IMG/VR virus record: IMGVR_UViG_3300000576_000017
Span: 1 to 20,752 of that record
Strand: one strand, 5' to 3'
Length of the DNA: 20,752 bases
Source: a virus
The notes beneath the pieces were generated by a model. The model made no database searches, was not told where the DNA came from, and was given only the letters and a program-made list of their open reading frames with translations. Shown here in pieces: positions 1,766-18,877 of the stretch. The first letter of the stretch is position 1, and every line of letters begins with the position of its first letter. The translations under genes and the position numbers were made by a program.

Positions 1766-2314
1766 TTAGCTCCTTTTTTCAATTAATTTTTCTGGCCACT
1801 GCAAATACAGTAGCCAACTTTCATCCTTAATAATTAGTGGGTACTTCATTCTTTTCGCCATTAGTTCATAATAACTTGGCTTGGTTGGCATTCTCTTTGG
1901 TACTATCTTTTTGTTGTCTCCTTTTCCATGGTTACATGGCTTGCACGCAGACACAATATTAGTCCAGCTAGTCTTACCACCATGTGCTCTTGGCACAACA
2001 TGGTCAAGTGTGAGTTCGTCAGTGCTCTTCGCGTGGTTGTCTCCACAATACTGACATGTAAAGTCATCTCTTAGTAGCACATTGTTTCGAGTGTATTTCA
2101 CCATCCTGTTCCACTTTATGTATTGTGTAGTCATCACAACACTAGGAACTTTTAGTGTAGTGGAGGGAGACCTCACCTCCCAATCTTCATACTCGTGCAC
2201 AACGTTGACTTTATCTTGATACGCAAGACGAACCGCAGTCTGCCAAGGTACTACTGAGAATGGCACCACACTAAGTGGTTGTGCATCTTGATTTAGTATC
2301 AATACATCTGTCAT
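1766..2314 (-). CDS. HNH endonuclease
   Basis: The 182-residue product carries an HNH nuclease fold: a CxxC pair (CQYCG), LTLDHVVPRAHGG as the core His motif, WTNIVSACKPCN with the Asn and second CxxC pair, and a following KGD. An N-terminal region of about 85 residues (VLILNQDAQPLSVVPFSVV onwards) matches a widespread bacterial and phage HNH group. It probably cuts DNA as a metal-dependent nickase or endonuclease. It could be a free-standing homing enzyme or a DNA-processing protein. The ATG at 2314 is preferred over a TTG at 2335, but neither has a clear Shine-Dalgarno site. A palindrome resembling a terminator lies about 20 bp upstream, so expression of this gene is unclear. Confidence 0.88.
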   Translation of the reverse strand: MTDVLILNQDAQPLSVVPFSVVPWQTAVRLAYQDKVNVVHEYEDWEVRSPSTTLKVPSVVMTTQYIKWNRMVKYTRNNVLLRDDFTCQYCGDNHAKSTDELTLDHVVPRAHGGKTSWTNIVSACKPCNHGKGDNKKIVPKRMPTKPSYYELMAKRMKYPLIIKDESWLLYLQWPEKLIEKRS

Positions 2315-2334
2315 TGTAGTCACTTTATTTATCA

Positions 2335-2354
2335 AAAAAACCTATAGGTTTTTT
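2335..2354 (-). terminator. A/T-rich perfect palindrome with U-tract
   Basis: A 20-bp perfect palindrome (A6-CCTATAGG-T6) is followed on the minus strand by a run of seven T. It lies after the metallopeptidase gene and before the HNH gene. The stem has few GC pairs, so it may be only a weak terminator. Confidence 0.4.
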
Positions 2355-7777: not shown

Positions 7778-8683
7778 TTATTTTCCTATTACATTATCCC
7801 AAATATAAGCGTGCACCCTAGCACTCACATTATATCCGCGGCGTATGGTTTCTTCTACTATTTCAACTGTGTCATTGTCTCTTTGACTTGAATCTGTTGC
7901 TCCCACTGGCATGATCCAAACTGGCCAAGTCACACCTTCGTTTCTGAATAGCTGAACTAGTTCTTCAAGTTCATCCCATGATTCTGGTGCATTCCTGACG
8001 ACAAACTTTAGCTGTCCACTCTTAGAGACTTCTTGATATTCTGCAACAACCGCTGGATGTATTGCACGCTTGTTAGACTCTCCACTAACAGTGAATAGCT
8101 TGGGACTCACGCTCCAGAACCATTCACTAGTGCTCGTGTTTGAATACAGATTCTTAATAAGCTGTTTTAGTTCGGGTGTGATTTCTCTTGTACCATTGGT
8201 TTCAACTGTCACGTGTGTGGGGAAGTTATCTCTCTCAAGAAATTCATCTATGATTCCAATCATTCCGCGTTGATTCTTTTTCAACATGGGCTCGCCGCCA
8301 GTCATACACAAATGTCGAACTTTTCCATCACTCGTTACAAATTCACCATGTGGGTTGTAGTCATTATTCAGTAGAGATTCAAGTTTGTCTGCTATCTCTG
8401 ATACTGTGGATTCTGGACATAAATGCTTGAACCGCTTTGCCCATGAGTAAGATGAGTCGCATCCAGTAGTCCAAACAGGTAAATCTTCTATTCTACTAAC
8501 ATCCACAAGATCTATTTCTTTGTACGGAAGCACATATGTGTCAGGATCAGTTGGGTCTTCTTGTCCAAAACCAGAGCACGTTAGATTACACATGAACCAC
8601 CTAACCCATACTGTTGGAATTCCAGTATAGTGTCCTTCAAATTGTGCACTGGAAAACACTTCGGAATATCTATATTTCTCCAT
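7778..8683 (-). CDS. queE: QueE-like 7-carboxy-7-deazaguanine synthase (radical SAM)
   Basis: The 301-residue product matches the QueE group, which turns 6-carboxytetrahydropterin into 7-carboxy-7-deazaguanine, a precursor of queuosine and of 7-deazaguanine DNA bases. Visible features are an N-terminal YSEVFSSAQFEGHYTGIPTVW, CNLTC (Cys32, Cys36), TGGEPML (128-134), VETNGT, and WSVSPK. The usual CxxxCxxC motif lacks its third Cys; Phe39 stands there (CSGFG). A later GCDSSYSW (Cys75) may supply the missing ligand. The ATG at 8683 follows AAGGA, and a promoter lies at 8712-8740. DpdA and a QueD-like gene in the same cluster support DNA modification. An unrelated activity within the same radical SAM group cannot be ruled out. 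Confidence 0.85.
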   Translation of the reverse strand: MEKYRYSEVFSSAQFEGHYTGIPTVWVRWFMCNLTCSGFGQEDPTDPDTYVLPYKEIDLVDVSRIEDLPVWTTGCDSSYSWAKRFKHLCPESTVSEIADKLESLLNNDYNPHGEFVTSDGKVRHLCMTGGEPMLKKNQRGMIGIIDEFLERDNFPTHVTVETNGTREITPELKQLIKNLYSNTSTSEWFWSVSPKLFTVSGESNKRAIHPAVVAEYQEVSKSGQLKFVVRNAPESWDELEELVQLFRNEGVTWPVWIMPVGATDSSQRDNDTVEIVEETIRRGYNVSARVHAYIWDNVIGK

Positions 8684-11215: not shown

Positions 11216-12399
11216 TGATGCTTTCCTATGTTGACGAACTTTCTATAATCTAATGTATTTCTTTGGTACTGAGGTAAGTTAACTCCAGTAATTATATCAA
11301 GTGTTCTGTCAATTGTCTTGTCTTGATAGCTGCTCACTTTACCAATGTTATACTCTAACGAATCATAGTTTAGCGCTGAGTATATCTTGTTTACTGCATC
11401 TGTAACACTCCAAGGTATGTACATATGATTTTCATTGTTTGCAAATACTTCTGGAAAGCTTCGGTAAGCTGGATATATCGTACCCACTCCTAATGCATCA
11501 GCCTCACTGACTGTATTACTCACCCAATCTTGCAACGCACAATTAAATAAAACTCTGCTATCATTGAGTAAAGAATAGTATTGGTCTTTTTTTAGACCTG
11601 TGTATATCTTGAAGTTTACATCATCTCGTTCAGATAGCTCTGATGCTCTATCAACATATTCTTGCCTGTTACTCTTTAACTGGTTATGGCCAGAGAGCAC
11701 AGCAAACTCTACTTCAGTGCCATTTATTCTTGCGTATTCTTCAACAACATCCATATAAAAGTGTGGCTGCTTTTCATCATCCCATCTTGCTGCAAACACA
11801 ACACGCAAGCTTTTTTCTTGTGTTGGTTTTATGCTCACACGACTTTGCACCTCATCTTTACCGAACGGCAGACCACTTACGTATATATTAGACTTAAAAC
11901 CAGCGATACGAAGGTGTGCAACCATTTCTTCTGATGCAACAATAATTCCGTCAACAACACTATCAACAATCTGCTCGTATGGTCGCATCCAATTAAACAT
12001 TCCTTCTCTGTTGACAAAATCATCAGGGTCTATAGTTTGAGCTAGACATCTAACAAAGATACGAGGATGATATTGCTCTGGCGTTTGATCAAGTATATAA
12101 GGTAGCGACTCAAACCCAGGTGTGAACATATCTTCGTAAAAGATAACATCTTCAGACGTTACCTCGCCTCTTTGTAGCATCTTAACTAAATTTGCATGTT
12201 GGGTTAGGCTATAATAGCTTCTACCATGTGCATCAAGAACTGATCCAGTAACTATCTGATTGTCATTATCAAGATAGTCGCCTCTCACAATCTCATAGTT
12301 TATGTTTCTTCGTTTGAATACTTCTGTATTCCAATTTTCAAGTTGCCATGTGTATCTTGCCTCATACTTCTCAAGGCCCATGTACCACAATTTTCTCAT
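11212..12399 (-). CDS. Glycosyltransferase, GT-B type (GT4-like)
   Basis: The 395-residue product resembles family 4 glycosyltransferases: a C-terminal nucleotide-sugar domain with VVFAARWDDEKQPHFYMDVV, IYTGLKKDQYYSLLNDSRVL, and SEADALGVGTIYPAYRSFPEV holding the donor-site Glu region. The N-terminal half begins LWYMGLEKYEARYTWQLENW and contains a Rossmann-like acceptor domain. It transfers a sugar from a nucleotide-sugar donor. The acceptor is unknown. The ATG at 12399 overlaps the DpdA-like stop (ATGA), so both are made together. This coupling raises the idea that it decorates modified DNA bases, as T4 glycosyltransferases do for hydroxymethylcytosine. Modification of host surface sugars or virion proteins is an alternative. 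Confidence 0.84.
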   Translation of the reverse strand: MRKLWYMGLEKYEARYTWQLENWNTEVFKRRNINYEIVRGDYLDNDNQIVTGSVLDAHGRSYYSLTQHANLVKMLQRGEVTSEDVIFYEDMFTPGFESLPYILDQTPEQYHPRIFVRCLAQTIDPDDFVNREGMFNWMRPYEQIVDSVVDGIIVASEEMVAHLRIAGFKSNIYVSGLPFGKDEVQSRVSIKPTQEKSLRVVFAARWDDEKQPHFYMDVVEEYARINGTEVEFAVLSGHNQLKSNRQEYVDRASELSERDDVNFKIYTGLKKDQYYSLLNDSRVLFNCALQDWVSNTVSEADALGVGTIYPAYRSFPEVFANNENHMYIPWSVTDAVNKIYSALNYDSLEYNIGKVSSYQDKTIDRTLDIITGVNLPQYQRNTLDYRKFVNIGKHQ

Positions 12400-13943
12400 T
12401 GATTACTCCCATCAAAAATATCGTCTGAGTCTTCAATAACATCGCTGCAATGAGTTGTGCTTTGGTCTTGGAACAATGAATCAAAAGTGTTAGACCGCTT
12501 ACCACCTATACTGATACTCTCCAAGAAAGCAGCATTATCATTGAGTATCTTTTGTGGATCTTTTGTAGTGGGATCAAACACATCTTCTACAAGTTTATTA
12601 AAGAATAACAATGATGCTGGTATTAGATCACTAACTTTGTTTGCTCCACTATTCTTTTTATCTGCGGTCCAATCACTATAGTGTAACCTTTGATAGATAC
12701 CTCTACACATTTCAAAGTCTACCAGCTTATTCGCTTCTATGACAGCTTCTATGTGCTTATACACGCAATGCGCAGCTACCAATACATAACTCATACTATC
12801 CCAAGACCCAAGACCTTCTTTCCCGAGCTGGTTCAGATCACCATGTCCAAGCTGACAAATATGCCCAACATTCATTCTGTCTGCGATTGGTGACTGAAAT
12901 GGAAGTGGAACAGTAGAACCTTTCATTGATCGTTCATCAATCGTGTTTCTCTGAACATACCCAATTCTTTCAGGTGTGAATATGTTATCTGCGTATATCT
13001 GACCTTTAGCTGCACCAAGAAATGGCGTTGCAGCATCAAAACTAATAGTGATGTTTGGGTTGTAATACTTTCTTAACTGTCTTTGTATCGCAGTCAAATA
13101 ACACGCCCAATCTAATCTACCAATACCAAGAAAGTGTATCCAATCTTTGTACTCAAGCAATCTACTTCTAGACAAGTCTAACATTCTCTCTAGCGCGGTC
13201 TTCATATGAAATTTATTGATACCGGCAAAAGCATACCCTTCAAATGTTCTATCAGGGGACAGATTCATCTTTGTGACTTCGGCTTGGTTGCTATATGGGA
13301 TAACTGCATCATACCATGTCTTGCTGTTAGTCGGAGACGTGCCACTCAAGACATTAAGAAACTTTGTCTTACCAGGTGTGCGATTCTTGATAAAGTAATC
13401 TAGGTTGATTAATGTGTAATCTAGTGTGTCCTTAAAAGATGTCAGCTTTGTTTTTTTGTTATATGGAGGTTCAGATGCCATAGCAGGAATATCAAACGTC
13501 ATACTCCAATCAGCAGTATTTTCAAGCCAGTTTAGTATTTTATGCCTGATAACATCACCACTGGCACCTGTGAAATTGTCCCAATCCATGTTCTTGAAAT
13601 GACTAGCACCTTTAGCCACTTGATAGCCACTGCTGTCACCAATTAGTGTTGTGTGATTACGATCTCTGCCATGTACCATGGATTCATCTGTCCGTCCTTT
13701 TGTTAAATCAAGATGTGCATGACCAGCAGAGTACAAAGCCCACTTATAGTGAAAGTAGCTGTTGTGTTCTTTCAAAAAGTCAAGACCAGCACTACCCAGT
13801 TCAAAAGAGTTACCAAAACGTTGATCTTGGTAACTCTGTGGCTTGTTAATAGACTTGGCTAATTGGCGAACAAAAAAGGTACTTAAAGCTGGTAAGTAAA
13901 TACTGTAACCACCGTTTTCTATTGCGCTATTAAAGTCTGTCAT
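12396..13943 (-). CDS. dpdA: DpdA-like DNA transglycosylase (TGT family)
   Basis: The 515-residue product fits the tRNA-guanine transglycosylase fold as used by phage DpdA, which swaps guanine in DNA for a 7-deazaguanine base. Visible matches are GDSSGYQ (102-108, compare SDSGGFQ in TGT, general-base Asp103), MTFDIPAMA (Asp151), FEGYAFAGINKF (compare the GYxIGGL loop), FLGIGRLDWA (271-280), and SFDAATP (301-307, nucleophile-type Asp303). It is longer than bacterial TGT (about 375 residues), as expected for DpdA, and I see no clear TGT zinc CxCxxC site. It begins with a TAATG overlap to the clamp gene. QueE- and QueD-like genes downstream support DNA modification rather than tRNA queuosine synthesis. 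Confidence 0.82.
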   Translation of the reverse strand: MTDFNSAIENGGYSIYLPALSTFFVRQLAKSINKPQSYQDQRFGNSFELGSAGLDFLKEHNSYFHYKWALYSAGHAHLDLTKGRTDESMVHGRDRNHTTLIGDSSGYQVAKGASHFKNMDWDNFTGASGDVIRHKILNWLENTADWSMTFDIPAMASEPPYNKKTKLTSFKDTLDYTLINLDYFIKNRTPGKTKFLNVLSGTSPTNSKTWYDAVIPYSNQAEVTKMNLSPDRTFEGYAFAGINKFHMKTALERMLDLSRSRLLEYKDWIHFLGIGRLDWACYLTAIQRQLRKYYNPNITISFDAATPFLGAAKGQIYADNIFTPERIGYVQRNTIDERSMKGSTVPLPFQSPIADRMNVGHICQLGHGDLNQLGKEGLGSWDSMSYVLVAAHCVYKHIEAVIEANKLVDFEMCRGIYQRLHYSDWTADKKNSGANKVSDLIPASLLFFNKLVEDVFDPTTKDPQKILNDNAAFLESISIGGKRSNTFDSLFQDQSTTHCSDVIEDSDDIFDGSNQ

Positions 13944-14689
13944 TACACTGCCTTTGCTGGTAGAATGTATTCAAATTTTCCTTCTTCGTTTGAGAACTCA
14001 ATCTTTAATGCACCTTTTTCAGAAAAGCACATAACACAATCTTCTGATTTCACAGCAAGCCTGAGTATAGCCAGCGTCTCGTTGATTGGCCATCCCCATC
14101 TGCCACCTAGTGTTCCACTAACATCACGAGCAAAAGGTACGTTAGTTCTATCATTACTTCCAGTACCGATCTTTAATACCAAATCCCCATCTATTGTTTG
14201 TGCGACAAAGATTTGCTCAAATGATCCTAGTATACCAGAAAAATAACTTAAGTCCTTTATATTACCTTCATTGGGCGCTACAGTTACGTCCCAAGTAGTA
14301 CCGCGGAAAACAGGAACTTTGATTTGCTCTTCAACAAGCTCTGAACTCATGAAACGATAGGTAGACTTATGGCCACCTGCTGCACTAAATTTAACTTCAC
14401 TGGGAATATCTTTTCCACCACGACTCTCAGTGACAACTTCTACTTTTGCACTCTCATCTTGAAATGGTGGGAATTTCAAGTAGCCATTTAGCACACTCAT
14501 TCTTGCCAGTCCTACTACACCTTCAAGCTCTGAGACTGGGTTGTGAAGTTTCCCATACATCACAACAGAACGTGATGGTTCCATTGCCTCAAACACCGTT
14601 TCTACATCATTGGTTGTGATTTTGACCATATCAATGAAACCGAGTCCATGTGTATGATCAAGAATATTTCGTAGAGTTTTGCTTAACAT
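13943..14689 (-). CDS. Sliding clamp, gp45-like
   Basis: The 248-residue product has the length and layout of the T4-like DNA polymerase clamp: an N-terminal helix (LSKTLRNILDHTHGL), a central section with long strands (SGILGSFEQIFVAQTIDGDL), and a strand-rich end (LAILRLAVKSEDCVMCFSEK, then IEFSNEEGKFEYIL). Similarity by eye is moderate, so the context matters: it lies directly after the polymerase, whose C-terminal tail looks like a clamp-binding peptide. A promoter overlaps the polymerase 3' end, and GGAG precedes the ATG. The clamp encircles DNA and, in T4, also activates late transcription. It heads the long operon of modification and nucleotide genes. Confidence 0.76.
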   Translation of the reverse strand: MLSKTLRNILDHTHGLGFIDMVKITTNDVETVFEAMEPSRSVVMYGKLHNPVSELEGVVGLARMSVLNGYLKFPPFQDESAKVEVVTESRGGKDIPSEVKFSAAGGHKSTYRFMSSELVEEQIKVPVFRGTTWDVTVAPNEGNIKDLSYFSGILGSFEQIFVAQTIDGDLVLKIGTGSNDRTNVPFARDVSGTLGGRWGWPINETLAILRLAVKSEDCVMCFSEKGALKIEFSNEEGKFEYILPAKAV

Positions 14690-14715
14690 TGTTTCTCCTG
14701 TAGTAAATTTTTCTA

Positions 14716-14744
14716 ATTATATAATACTTTTTATCCGAAGTCAA
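14716..14744 (-). promoter_or_regulatory. Promoter for the clamp/dpdA operon
   Basis: TTGACT (14739-14744) and TATAAT (14716-14721) are 17 bp apart on the minus strand. The -35 box lies in the last codons of the polymerase C-terminal gene. The clamp start at 14689 is 27 bp beyond the -10 box. Confidence 0.85.
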
Positions 14745-15747
14745 ACAAACTTTCCATGTGTTCTACTTCGGGTGATGTTCTTGATAAATCCCACCCAAGA
14801 ATTGAAAGTAGATTTTCAATTTTTTTGTCAACCACTGTTTGCATCATTGCATCTTCATCAAACGGAAGCTTCGTGAACCATTCTGGCAAATGTGTCTCGT
14901 CCACTGGATATGCAACACTTGACATTCTCAAATCATTATTCTCTTTTAGTGGACACACAACGATCTTCTGTCCATCTACAATTCTACTGCTATGTCTGTC
15001 ATGATACCTTTCTCTTAACGTGTTCCAGTTGATACTAGCCATAACATGTCCAGGTATAGTAGGCTTGGCTATTTTTCCATGTGTTGCTCTCTTTTTCAGA
15101 TAATTTTCTAACACACTGCCATACTTGCTCAAGTTATTAACTGCTTTTGGTGATCCTTTTTCCCATGGTTTCTTTCTTGAAAAAGTGCTTTTGAACGTTC
15201 TGATAAACTCAATAACTTCGTCTTCTGATCTATTAGTAAGTACCAATTCAAGCACTTGCTTCAAAAATTCTTGTACAACTTTTGGTGTGTCACTTCTGCG
15301 AAGGTCCAATCCAGTTATTTTCATCTTACCTGGCTTACCATCAACATCTTTTCTCTGGCCTTCGTCGTCATATACCATTATAGCATAGCGCTTTTTCTTT
15401 ATGAATAAGCCTGTTTCGCCAACTACTTCTCTTGCAGACTTTATCACCTTACCTCTTTCTAATGGTACGTTAAAAGTCTCAAGCATAAATTGTGGGAAAG
15501 TACTACTAACTTCTGCTGATACGGTGTCATATAGTTCTATAACTGTGTCTTTATCCCATACTATTTCACCATTGTCAATTTCCTTGCTCAAAACAGAATA
15601 CGCAGAAAAGTAAACTGAGTTGTGCACTAAAATATCATTAGCAAAAAAATAAGGATCATCATTCGCAACACCTATATCATATACATACTCATCATCAAAA
15701 TCATCTAATCTCTCAACACCAACCACTTCACTTACTTTAACATCCAT
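14731..15747 (-). CDS. polB: DNA polymerase B, C-terminal half, preceded by C-intein
   Basis: The 338-residue product starts with a 43-residue C-intein (YVYDIGVANDDPYFFANDIL, ending VHN). The C-extein begins SVYFSAY, the second half of polymerase motif C. This part also holds KKKRYAIMVYDDEG (the conserved KKxY-type motif of family B) and the thumb domain. The tail ESLFDFG resembles the clamp-binding C-terminal peptide of RB69/T4 polymerase (SLFDMFDF). GGAGG lies ten bases before the ATG at 15747, so the half is translated on its own. After trans-splicing, 295 residues would be joined to the N-terminal half to give a polymerase of about 974 residues. Alone it lacks the exonuclease, fingers and most of the palm. 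Confidence 0.93.
   Translation of the reverse strand: MDVKVSEVVGVERLDDFDDEYVYDIGVANDDPYFFANDILVHNSVYFSAYSVLSKEIDNGEIVWDKDTVIELYDTVSAEVSSTFPQFMLETFNVPLERGKVIKSAREVVGETGLFIKKKRYAIMVYDDEGQRKDVDGKPGKMKITGLDLRRSDTPKVVQEFLKQVLELVLTNRSEDEVIEFIRTFKSTFSRKKPWEKGSPKAVNNLSKYGSVLENYLKKRATHGKIAKPTIPGHVMASINWNTLRERYHDRHSSRIVDGQKIVVCPLKENNDLRMSSVAYPVDETHLPEWFTKLPFDEDAMMQTVVDKKIENLLSILGWDLSRTSPEVEHMESLFDFG
15619..15747 (-). other. C-intein (blocks F and G) of split PolB intein
   Basis: The 43 residues contain block F (EYVYDIGVANDDPYFFAND) and block G (ILVHN). The terminal Asn and the preceding His are the residues needed for Asn cyclisation. The next residue, Ser, is the +1 nucleophile. Confidence 0.95.
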
Positions 15748-15826
15748 TTCTTACAATCCTCCAGTACTGTTGCGTTATGTAATCAAACAGCAGTTCTATT
15801 TCTTCTTTTTCTTCGTCTGTATATGG
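15748..15826 (-). other. Spacer between split polymerase genes
   Basis: The 79-bp spacer holds the GGAGG site (15758-15762) of the downstream half. In the N-intein frame, directly after its TAA, 28 further codons are open and encode a charged, helical-looking peptide (YTDEEKEEIELLFDYITQQY and a short basic end). This could be a remnant of a former intein middle domain or of an inserted gene. The C-intein lies in another frame, with a TAA just before its ATG. Confidence 0.5.
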
Positions 15827-18244
15827 TTATGTTGACGTGTCGCTATCAACTATTGTTATTACTAAATCTCCTTGTTTTATTTCACTAGGTTTTTTCTCTA
15901 TTAAGCGACCATCTTGCATTATCATCACACTGTGATCATCAGTAACCACAACTGACTTTCCGTTAGAAGTTGTTACTCTATACCGTGCTTTGTTTTTTAC
16001 TTTGTGTCGGTATACATAGTTGTAATTAACAAAGTTCAAGACACCACTTGACCCAGTATGTGCTATTTTTATATCGCTGTTAAGAGAGTATTCTTTACCA
16101 TTGCTCTCCCAGTATTCATTCCCCTGCAAGAACAGCTCTTCTATAGTGGTATTTTGCACAGTCCCATTATCACGTGATATTCTTATCAATGAATCATGTG
16201 CAACCGAATCAGTATCTCCTGCGACGCACGCCCTTCCTTCATGGTCATACGATCCGTCAAGTATCTCATTGGTCTTTGCGGCCATATGTTTTGTTATACT
16301 TCTACCTGTTAATGTCGTACTCTGACCTATCCTTTTATCATAAAATCTACAATGAACATTCAATAGTCCGCCATAAACTGAGTTCAGAGAAATCTTACGA
16401 ACAAGCTGCCTCTTATCCCAAAAACTAACGAGCTTATTAAGTGTGTCGACATCTTGGTGTTTAACCAACCCATCACTAATACACAAACTATGTGCTGTTA
16501 AATAAGATTCGAGGTCTTCGGTGTTCTTTAGTGCATCCACAGAAAAGACTTCACCAATTGAATATCCATCTACAGTACCTTCTTCAGTTGGTGTAAAAGT
16601 CAAGTTGTTGTCAAGCTGAATACCGTTAACCAAACTTTCGTAATCTTTTTTAACTCTTTGCATCAGTTGTCGTTCAGAGTACCATCGTGTAAGAAGCGCT
16701 GGAATTATACCCTCTTGATCTGTCTTGAATATTGTTCCGTTGGCAGTTATGCACCAATTGTTATTTTTATTAAATACTAACTGACGAAGCTCAGCGCCAC
16801 TTAATTGAATACTTTGATTGTCTTCCATATCCAAAGTTAGATTTGCAACGTTATCAGCATCGTAAAAGTATTCCATTTCTAACACATTAAACCTGTCGTT
16901 CCACCATTCGGTCATGAACCGTTTAGCACCAGGTTGACTTACCCATTTTAATATCTCAGTGTCCGTCTCTGTTGTTCGTATTTGACCAACAATAGTCTCA
17001 GGGCTCATGTTACATGCTCTGATAACAGATGGATACAGACTGTTTAAGTCTGCTGATCCAATCCACTTGTGTAAACCTTTCTTGGGCGTCTGAACCCATC
17101 CTCCTGCTGCTTTGTCTTCAAGGTCAGCGAACTCTTCATCAAACACACTATGTTCGTTCTTTTTATATGATTTGTCTGGTACTCGCAAACCTTTGCTGTG
17201 AGCTTCGCAAATAATTGCGTTCTCTGTTACAGCAACTGCACCCATTGCGGCTGGAAGTAGCACACACGCACTATGTGCAATTGTTATAGCAAGTTCAATG
17301 TACTGAAGCTTTTTGTCTATGCGATCAAGCAATAAAGTATCTTGAATGTTATATTCTATGAACTTCTGAAAGTCATTGTGATACAACTCATCAAGTGTTC
17401 CATCGTACTCTACTTTCTTTTCACCAAGTTCAGCTTCAGCAATATTATCTAATGAATAGCTGTGTCGCTCTTCATATGTAAACTTTTTATATAGCTGCAA
17501 GTAGTCAAAGTGAATACGCCCAGTTAGATCATACGTCTCTGCGGTCTTTCCACCTCTCAGATATTCTCGCTTTGAAGGAAGTTGACCCCACAAACACAAC
17601 TTTCGGCTTTCATTTCTTCCGAGTATTTTGAATATGCGATTCACCGTGTATGGGATATCATACCCTTCGCTGTTCCACCCACTGATAATATCAGCATCTT
17701 CAACTAATAGCAGAAAAGACTGCAATAGCTCTGATTCACTTTCGCAGATGATAGTATTTCCAACAGTACATGCAATCTGTTGTGCTTGTTCTTTTGTGAC
17801 TGTATCTGGTGCCAATGCAAGACATACAGTTTGATTCAACCACTGTAAATGAACAGCAACTGATATAATTGGGTTATTTGCGTCTTCTGGATCGCTGTAA
17901 CCTAGCTCTTGGTCAAACGCAGTCTCAATGTCAAAGAATAAGTTGTTCGTGACTGGTGTATTTTTGTTTAAGTAATGTGCTTCAAGTACTTTATTAAGTG
18001 GCTTGATATCACTTTCAAATTTTTGTTTGTGTGAGTGGATTCGTTTAAGTTGTTTGAACTCTTTATCAGTATTGCACGTTATACGAGATAGCGAGTCTCC
18101 GTATATGCTCTTGTGTCTTCCATTTGGGTCTTTGGTGTAAAATTCATATACAGCGGGATAGTCAATGAAAACTCTTTTTCCGTTGACTCTTTCTACTACC
18201 TTTACAACCGATTCATTTGGTGCATATATTGCATCTACGTACAT
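15827..18244 (-). CDS. polB: DNA polymerase B, N-terminal half fused to N-intein
   Basis: The 805-residue product contains the proofreading exonuclease and the first part of the polymerase of a T4/RB69-like family B enzyme. Exo I is LFFDIETAFD (Asp105, Glu107), Exo II ISGWNSEGYDIPY (Asp196), and Exo III EYNIQDTLLLD (Asp302). Polymerase motif A is DLNSLYPSVIR (399-409) and motif B RKISLNSVYGG (616-626). Motif C starts AGDTD and is interrupted by the N-intein at residue 680. The ATG at 18244 is chosen because AAGGAG lies just upstream. An in-frame ATG at 18265 overlaps the previous gene and has no such site. It should replicate the phage genome once joined to the half at 14731. Confidence 0.95.
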   Translation of the reverse strand: MYVDAIYAPNESVVKVVERVNGKRVFIDYPAVYEFYTKDPNGRHKSIYGDSLSRITCNTDKEFKQLKRIHSHKQKFESDIKPLNKVLEAHYLNKNTPVTNNLFFDIETAFDQELGYSDPEDANNPIISVAVHLQWLNQTVCLALAPDTVTKEQAQQIACTVGNTIICESESELLQSFLLLVEDADIISGWNSEGYDIPYTVNRIFKILGRNESRKLCLWGQLPSKREYLRGGKTAETYDLTGRIHFDYLQLYKKFTYEERHSYSLDNIAEAELGEKKVEYDGTLDELYHNDFQKFIEYNIQDTLLLDRIDKKLQYIELAITIAHSACVLLPAAMGAVAVTENAIICEAHSKGLRVPDKSYKKNEHSVFDEEFADLEDKAAGGWVQTPKKGLHKWIGSADLNSLYPSVIRACNMSPETIVGQIRTTETDTEILKWVSQPGAKRFMTEWWNDRFNVLEMEYFYDADNVANLTLDMEDNQSIQLSGAELRQLVFNKNNNWCITANGTIFKTDQEGIIPALLTRWYSERQLMQRVKKDYESLVNGIQLDNNLTFTPTEEGTVDGYSIGEVFSVDALKNTEDLESYLTAHSLCISDGLVKHQDVDTLNKLVSFWDKRQLVRKISLNSVYGGLLNVHCRFYDKRIGQSTTLTGRSITKHMAAKTNEILDGSYDHEGRACVAGDTDSVAHDSLIRISRDNGTVQNTTIEELFLQGNEYWESNGKEYSLNSDIKIAHTGSSGVLNFVNYNYVYRHKVKNKARYRVTTSNGKSVVVTDDHSVMIMQDGRLIEKKPSEIKQGDLVITIVDSDTST
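15830..16207 (-). other. N-intein (blocks A and B) of split PolB intein
   Basis: The 126 residues begin with Ser1 (SVAHDSLIRIS, block A) right after the polymerase GDTD. Block B is RYRVTTSNGKSVVVTDDHSV, with the TxxH motif TDDH at intein residues 89-92. No endonuclease domain is present. The end (EIKQGDLVITIVDSDTST) is where natural split inteins usually break. Confidence 0.95.
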
Positions 18245-18877
18245 TAATTCTCCTTTGCTGCGCATTGATATTCTAATTCAAGTCTGGTTCTGATAGTATC
18301 ACCCCATCCCTGCTCATTCAGCTTAGACAACATTGCTTTTTCTGTAACTGTTCTTCTAGTGGTTGCATAAGTTCTGGGTAGTCGTCTTACAAAATTTGGA
18401 AACTATAGTCTGCCTTCCTTTCACCTTTATCTGCAAGTGCCCCGATATTCCTTTTTTACACACCACGAATCCTAAACTATTCAAGCGTGTGTTCTGGTGG
18501 TAAGTCTCTTTTTGCTTTCTCAACAGTGAACGACTGCTGAGCCACAGCTCTTGTGGTTTTCTGCGTGATTCTGATAATTTCTAGAACCTCCAGTTTCAAT
18601 GTTAATTAGTCCAAGACCTAATATATCAGATATCCAATAATGGCCCTCAGATTTATCTTTGTATGATATGCATAGTCTGCCACTAATTCCTTTGTAGTGT
18701 AGTGGCTTTTTGTTATCCCCGTGCCAATTTGTTGGTTTCCCCCCTTGGCGCTGAATGTGAATTACTCACTTTATGATGGTATTCCCCAGTGAAATAGACA
18801 TCTGTTATCTCAAATTCACTAGGCTTACGCATCAACACTTCAGCCATTGCAGTGTCAAACAGCTCCTTTGCGTTTTT
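18244..18877 (-). pseudogene. Frameshifted gene upstream of the polymerase
   Basis: Coding-like sequence runs from an ATG at 18877 (MKNAKELFDTAMAEVLMRKP) to a TAA at 18244 that overlaps the polymerase ATG (TAATG), but it changes frame at least four times. The first change is at a G6 run (18739-18744). Dropping one G continues the protein with PTNWHGDNKKPLHYKGISGR. Later pieces contain QQSFTVEKAKRDLPPEHTL (stop at 18477), LGFVVCKKGISGHLQIKVKG (stop at 18356), and LPRTYATTRRTVTEKAMLSK up to the final stop. The conceptual product is about 210 residues and contains KGISG twice, so it may hold a duplicated domain. I do not recognise it. Either the gene is dead, or this stretch has sequencing indels. 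Confidence 0.7.

What the first reader, a model, noticed from the sequence alone, without database searches (positions are those of the whole stretch)
14731..18244. Phage DNA polymerase split in two genes by a trans-splicing intein inside motif C
Seen: the N-gene ends with exo and polymerase motifs A and B, then GDTD followed by a Ser1 intein with block A and TDDH block B. The C-gene starts with blocks F and G (ILVHN) followed by SVYFSAY. Joining restores GDTDSVYFSAY, the catalytic motif C. Each half has its own Shine-Dalgarno site and the frames differ. Known: PolB inteins occupy this pol-c site, and Nanoarchaeum equitans has a split one there. Split inteins in fractured phage genes were reported for other replication and nucleotide genes. 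Inference: splicing is essential, fast, and could act as a switch for replication. The Ser1/+1 Ser chemistry makes it a distinct split intein to study.
Basis: partly seen in the sequence, partly recalled or inferred. Interest (0 to 1): 0.87.

Follow-up and report, generated by a model that had tools for sequence, protein, structure and literature searches.

The report
Phage DNA polymerase rejoined by split intein
A virus of bacteria encodes its DNA-copying enzyme in two genes whose products probably join by protein splicing inside the enzyme's active site; the parts are real, but phages with this arrangement are already known, and this one has no homing endonuclease gene between its halves.

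Summary
On the minus strand an 805-aa gene (15827-18244) ends in GDTD plus a 126-aa intein N-half. After a 79-bp spacer with stops in every frame, a 338-aa gene (14731-15747) begins with a 43-aa intein C-half and SVYF. All known catalytic positions of a class 1 Ser1/Ser+1 intein are present, and neither half has a cysteine. Splicing itself was not tested.

It is a new member of a known kind. Pseudomonas jumbo phages PA5oct and MIJ3 have the same split at the same site, published for MIJ3. Aes123 PolB1, CP21 and PolB16 are other cysteine-independent PolB split inteins. Two corrections: the site is GDTD|S, two residues downstream of pol-c (YGD|TDS), so it is not the Mimivirus/Nanoarchaeum allele; and Ser1/+1Ser chemistry is shared with many relatives.

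New here: the closest polymerases (60-68% identical) are intein-free; intein and polymerase trees conflict (AU p 2e-5 to 7e-14), so the intein moved horizontally; and the endonuclease gene found between the halves of most relatives is absent. A related pair (L215/L246) shows such a gene deleted while the split remains. In passing, three phages carry two inteins separated only by Thr-Asp inside motif C.

The parts
15827..18244 (-). N-gene: PolB N-extein plus intein N-half, 805 aa (alternative upstream ATG at 18265)
   Evidence: PF03104, PF00136 and PF14890 over cut-off; phrog_262 E 4e-148
16208..18244 (-). N-extein, 679 aa: exo I/II/III, motifs A and B, ends in GDTD of motif C
15830..16207 (-). 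Intein N-half (126 aa): Ser1, NX motif Arg67-His68, block B Thr89-Asp-Asp-His92, no Cys
15748..15826 (-). 79-bp spacer between the halves, stops in all three forward frames, no detectable homing-endonuclease remnant
15758..15762 (-). Shine-Dalgarno-like GGAGG for the C-gene
   Evidence: sequence
18250..18253 (-). Shine-Dalgarno-like GGAG for the N-gene ATG at 18244
   Evidence: sequence
14731..15747 (-). C-gene: intein C-half plus PolB C-extein, 338 aa
   Evidence: phrog_1918 E 1.5e-54; TIGR01443 over cut-off
15619..15747 (-). Intein C-half (43 aa): block F VYDIG, penultimate His42, Asn43, no Cys
14731..15618 (-). C-extein starting at +1 Ser (SVYFSAY), with KKKRY motif

Best explanation
A family B DNA polymerase of a PA5oct-like phage, interrupted inside catalytic motif C (GDTD|S) by a class 1, cysteine-free Ser1/Ser+1 split intein. 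The two genes are translated separately. The intein halves associate, fold and splice through ester intermediates (Ser1 N-to-O shift, transfer to the +1 Ser, Asn43 cyclisation), joining the exteins into GDTDSVYF and giving the full polymerase. The intein arrived horizontally. It belongs to a group of phage split inteins in which a VSR-like homing endonuclease gene usually sits between the halves; here that gene is absent, most likely lost by deletion, leaving a split intein with no mobility gene of its own beside it. Shown: the sequence anatomy, catalytic residues, insertion site, tree conflict and intein-free kin. Inferred: splicing activity, loss of the endonuclease, need for splicing.
For: Intein models hit both halves; closest solved relative 9hth aligned across blocks B, F and G. 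Ser1, NX His68, Thr89, Asp91, His92, His42, Asn43 and +1 Ser are invariant in the alignments. PA5oct has the same gene order and site with an endonuclease gene between the halves; C-gene 56% identical, N-gene 49%; MIJ3 is published as such. Closest PolBs L004-L012 are uninterrupted at GDTDSVYF. The polymerase tree groups the window with these and PA5oct (100/100); the intein tree groups it with L175 (95/91) and seven others (100/99); AU tests reject agreement, p 7e-14, 4e-5 and 2e-5. In that nine-row intein clade all but the window and L180 carry the endonuclease. L215 lacks about 856 bp of endonuclease present in L246 and keeps the split, with a 99-bp gap.
Against: No splicing was measured. 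The window's own spacer retains no recognisable endonuclease remnant, so loss is inferred from relatives only. No second contig of this phage was found to confirm the spacer. A structural model of the two halves together could not be made.
Confidence: 0.9

Rival explanations
1. An assembly or sequencing error: the intein is really contiguous (a mini-intein) and the stop and frame shift are artefacts.
For: Contiguous mini-inteins at the same site exist in relatives (L018, L235 and others). No second contig of this phage was found.
Against: The break lies where relatives carry the endonuclease gene; 84 of 92 split inteins in the survey have an endonuclease, a remnant of one, or only a short gap at this place. 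The C-half has its own ATG and GGAGG. One frame would need both a stop removed and a frame shift.
Confidence: 0.04
2. The halves do not splice but work as a two-subunit polymerase, as proposed for fractured genes without inteins.
For: The Agrobacterium phage Atu_ph07 polymerase is in two genes without an intein, broken upstream of motif B; Aes508 gp43 is annotated as split at another place without an intein.
Against: All splicing residues are kept, and the break falls inside motif C, which would leave 126 and 43 foreign residues at the active site.
Confidence: 0.04
3. The 79-bp spacer is an RNA intron or a recoding element that makes one protein.
For: Phage polymerase genes often carry group I introns; Aes508 has one in the same gene.
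Against: No Rfam intron or recoding element in 14600-18500. Even if the spacer were removed, the intein would still have to splice.
Confidence: 0.02

Closest known systems
Pseudomonas jumbo phages PA5oct / MIJ3 split PolB intein (PMC6892783)
   Same: Same polymerase clade, same GDTD|S site, Ser1/+1Ser, same split position, no Cys; the 248-aa protein next to the polymerase and a homologue of the window's 515-aa protein are shared.
   Different: A 1.7-kb gene (annotated Hef-like or HNH homing endonuclease) lies between the halves; the window has 79 bp. The window's intein belongs to another intein lineage (AU p 2e-5).
Aes123 PolB1 split intein and engineered CLm (PMC11923092; 9hth is the closest solved relative)
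   Same: Cysteine-less, Ser1/+1Ser, DTD|S site (read from phage Aes508), 120 + 39 aa halves; measured ultra-fast trans-splicing.
   Different: T4-like Aeromonas phage; a VSR-like endonuclease gene between the halves; N-halves about 33% identical.
LCGC14 PolB2, GOM-OPS-1 PolB2 and CP21 PolB1 split inteins (PMC12707363)
   Same: PolB host, Ser1/+1Ser, similar half lengths.
   Different: Each has one non-conserved Cys according to the paper; the window's has none. LCGC14 and GOM sequences were not compared here.
PolB16 OarG split intein (PMC10189870)
   Same: N-extein SGDTD, Ser1/+1Ser, NX histidine.
   Different: Atypical split with a 15-aa N-half.
pol-c inteins (Mimivirus, archaeal PolI, Nanoarchaeum equitans; PMC549080)
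   Same: Also inside motif C of PolB; the N. equitans one is split.
   Different: Insertion at YGD|TDS, two residues upstream.

Membership tests
Class 1 intein (Ser1/Ser+1 subgroup) | Nucleophile at residue 1, block B T-x-x-H, penultimate His, C-terminal Asn, nucleophile at +1 | tested here: met
   Ser1, Thr89/His92, His42, Asn43, +1 Ser
Class 1 intein (Ser1/Ser+1 subgroup) | NX motif [RK]-H of cysteine-independent inteins | tested here: met
   Arg67-His68; His68 invariant in the 11-row alignment
Class 1 intein (Ser1/Ser+1 subgroup) | Protein splicing activity | not testable with these tools
   needs co-expression
Naturally split intein | Halves encoded by two separate genes, broken at the usual endonuclease position | tested here: met
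   79-bp spacer with stops; same break as PA5oct and other split relatives
Naturally split intein | The halves associate and fold as one HINT domain | tested here: inconclusive
Fractured gene with free-standing homing endonuclease | VSR-like endonuclease gene between the intein halves | tested here: not met
   79-bp spacer; best HMM scores no better than shuffles
pol-c intein allele | Insertion at YGD|TDS | tested here: not met
   window is GDTD|S; pol-c defined in PMC549080
Aes123/PolB16-type site | Insertion at (G)DTD|S in PolB | tested here: met

The most novel reading that the evidence does not exclude
The split intein has outlived its homing endonuclease because obligatory joining of two separately made polymerase halves benefits the phage, for example as a control on when replication starts; it would be a domesticated split intein and not a decaying parasite.
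Probability: 0.05. Interest if true: 0.75.

Novelty: new member of a known kind. Interest (0 to 1): 0.36.

Why it matters
It is a naturally split intein with no cysteine in either half, from a lineage separate from Aes123 and PA5oct. Such inteins are described as rare and useful for joining proteins under oxidising conditions, so it is a testable candidate tool. For evolution, the comparison shows horizontal entry into an otherwise intact gene and an endonuclease-free end state in the life cycle of fractured genes. It also separates two intein alleles two residues apart in the most conserved motif of family B polymerases.

Tried and rejected
Endonuclease remnant in the spacer (PYTDEEKEEIELLFDYITQQYWRI): scores no better than shuffled peptides. 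Electrostatic signature of split against contiguous inteins: no difference in half charges (p 0.97 and 0.37), although the window's C-half is strongly acidic (-10). Promoter between the genes: no consensus site in the spacer and no enrichment over shuffles in the region. RNA intron: no Rfam match. Same spacer in another viral contig: none. The Dassa 2009 and Bhagawati 2019 papers were not held; what I say of 'fractured genes' as a class rests on citing papers and my own knowledge.

Full report
WHAT IS THERE. The window lies in a 27.7-kb virus record. On the minus strand, 15827-18244 encodes 805 aa and 14731-15747 encodes 338 aa in another frame, 79 bp apart. Together they hold all exonuclease and polymerase motifs of a family B polymerase once. 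The first product ends GDTD + 126 aa (S1VAHDSL...SDTST), the second starts with 43 aa (MDVKV...ILVHN) + SVYFSAY. Curated intein models recognise both halves, and the closest solved chain is 9hth, annotated as a DNA polymerase (E 2.7e-17). Catalytic positions are complete: Ser1, NX motif R67-H68, T89-D-D-H92, block F, H42, N43, +1 Ser. Neither half contains Cys. No other intein (PF14890) or PolB match was found in the record, which is a fragment.

KNOWN RELATIVES. The nearest cultured relatives are Pseudomonas jumbo phages PA5oct/MIJ3 (C-gene 56%, N-gene 49% identical). They have the same site and split with a 1.7-kb endonuclease gene between the halves; [quoted passage not shown] Aeromonas, Tenacibaculum, Campylobacter, Vibrio and Lak phages have similar arrangements with VSR-like endonuclease genes. 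Cysteine-less split PolB inteins have been characterised biochemically. So kind, host gene, site and chemistry are all known.

SITE. The pol-c allele, shared by Mimivirus, archaeal PolI and Nanoarchaeum, is YGD|TDS. The window is GDTD|S. Both alleles are frequent in related phages: 51 distinct GD|TDS and 55 GDTD|S inteins in my set, the latter Ser1/Ser+1, the former Ser1/Thr+1.

SURVEY. HMMs of both intein halves and of VSR-like endonucleases were run over 251 sequences. Among 110 distinct motif-C inteins: 62 split with an endonuclease gene, 9 split with an endonuclease remnant, 13 split with only a short gap (the window among them), 8 split with another or unrecognised insert, 18 contiguous. 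The set was gathered with intein motifs as bait and capped at 80 rows a scan, so these are not frequencies in nature, and the conservation counts are partly by construction.

ORIGIN. The closest polymerases (L004-L012, 60-68% over the C-extein, same 248-aa neighbour gene) have no intein. In the polymerase tree the window sits with these, PA5oct and L125 (100/100). In the intein tree it sits with L175 (95/91) in a nine-member clade (100/99) whose polymerases lie elsewhere. AU tests reject the window with the intein clade on polymerase data (p 7e-14), with L175 alone (p 4e-5), and the window with PA5oct and L125 on intein data (p 2e-5). The groups for these tests were chosen after the quick trees, so the p values are optimistic, but the likelihood differences are large (304, 141 and 71 log units). 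The intein moved between phages. Seven of the nine members of its clade carry the endonuclease; the window and L180 do not. Deletion is the likely route: L215 and L246 are 78-79% identical on both sides, and L215 lacks about 856 bp of endonuclease while keeping the split. The window's spacer itself shows no remnant, so its loss is inferred.

FUNCTION. Splicing is inferred from complete residues and from characterised relatives. Without it the two products would carry foreign tails at the active site, so it is probably required for polymerase activity. Nothing here supports regulation; the intein-free closest kin suggest a tolerated insertion.

VERDICT. Real and correctly read in its main point; a new, endonuclease-free, cysteine-free member of a known kind.

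Noticed in passing
L198 3583-5796 (IMGVR_UViG_3300043449_000599); L201 2218-5959 (3300020198_000887); L146 2536-5514 (3300009194_000009): Three phage contigs carry two inteins in one PolB motif C, separated only by Thr-Asp: GD|intein1|TD|intein2|S. In L198 both are contiguous in one ORF; in L201 the second is split with an endonuclease remnant; in L146 the first is split around a full endonuclease gene. I found no paper describing inteins two residues apart.
   Followed up: partly
L120 and L206; L166 and L164; L215 and L246; L126 and L128: Pairs of related phages differ in intein state: contiguous against split with endonuclease, or full against deleted endonuclease. They are direct snapshots of state changes in fractured genes.
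   Followed up: partly
window 12396-13943 and 7778-8683: A 515-aa protein without Pfam or NCBIfam match, whose LIGDSSGYQVAKG stretch reminds me of TGT/DpdA-type transglycosylases, shares the record with a QueE-like radical SAM protein (phrog_2076). The phage may modify its DNA with 7-deazaguanine. Homologues lie near the polymerase in PA5oct and several intein-free kin.
   Followed up: no
window 1766-2335: Free-standing HNH endonuclease gene (PF01844 E 3e-14), about 12 kb from the polymerase; a role in moving the intein was not examined.
   Followed up: no
window 13943-14689: 248-aa protein directly downstream of the polymerase, conserved there in PA5oct and the intein-free kin whose contigs cover it, without any Pfam or NCBIfam match; the position suggests a sliding-clamp-like partner.
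   Followed up: no
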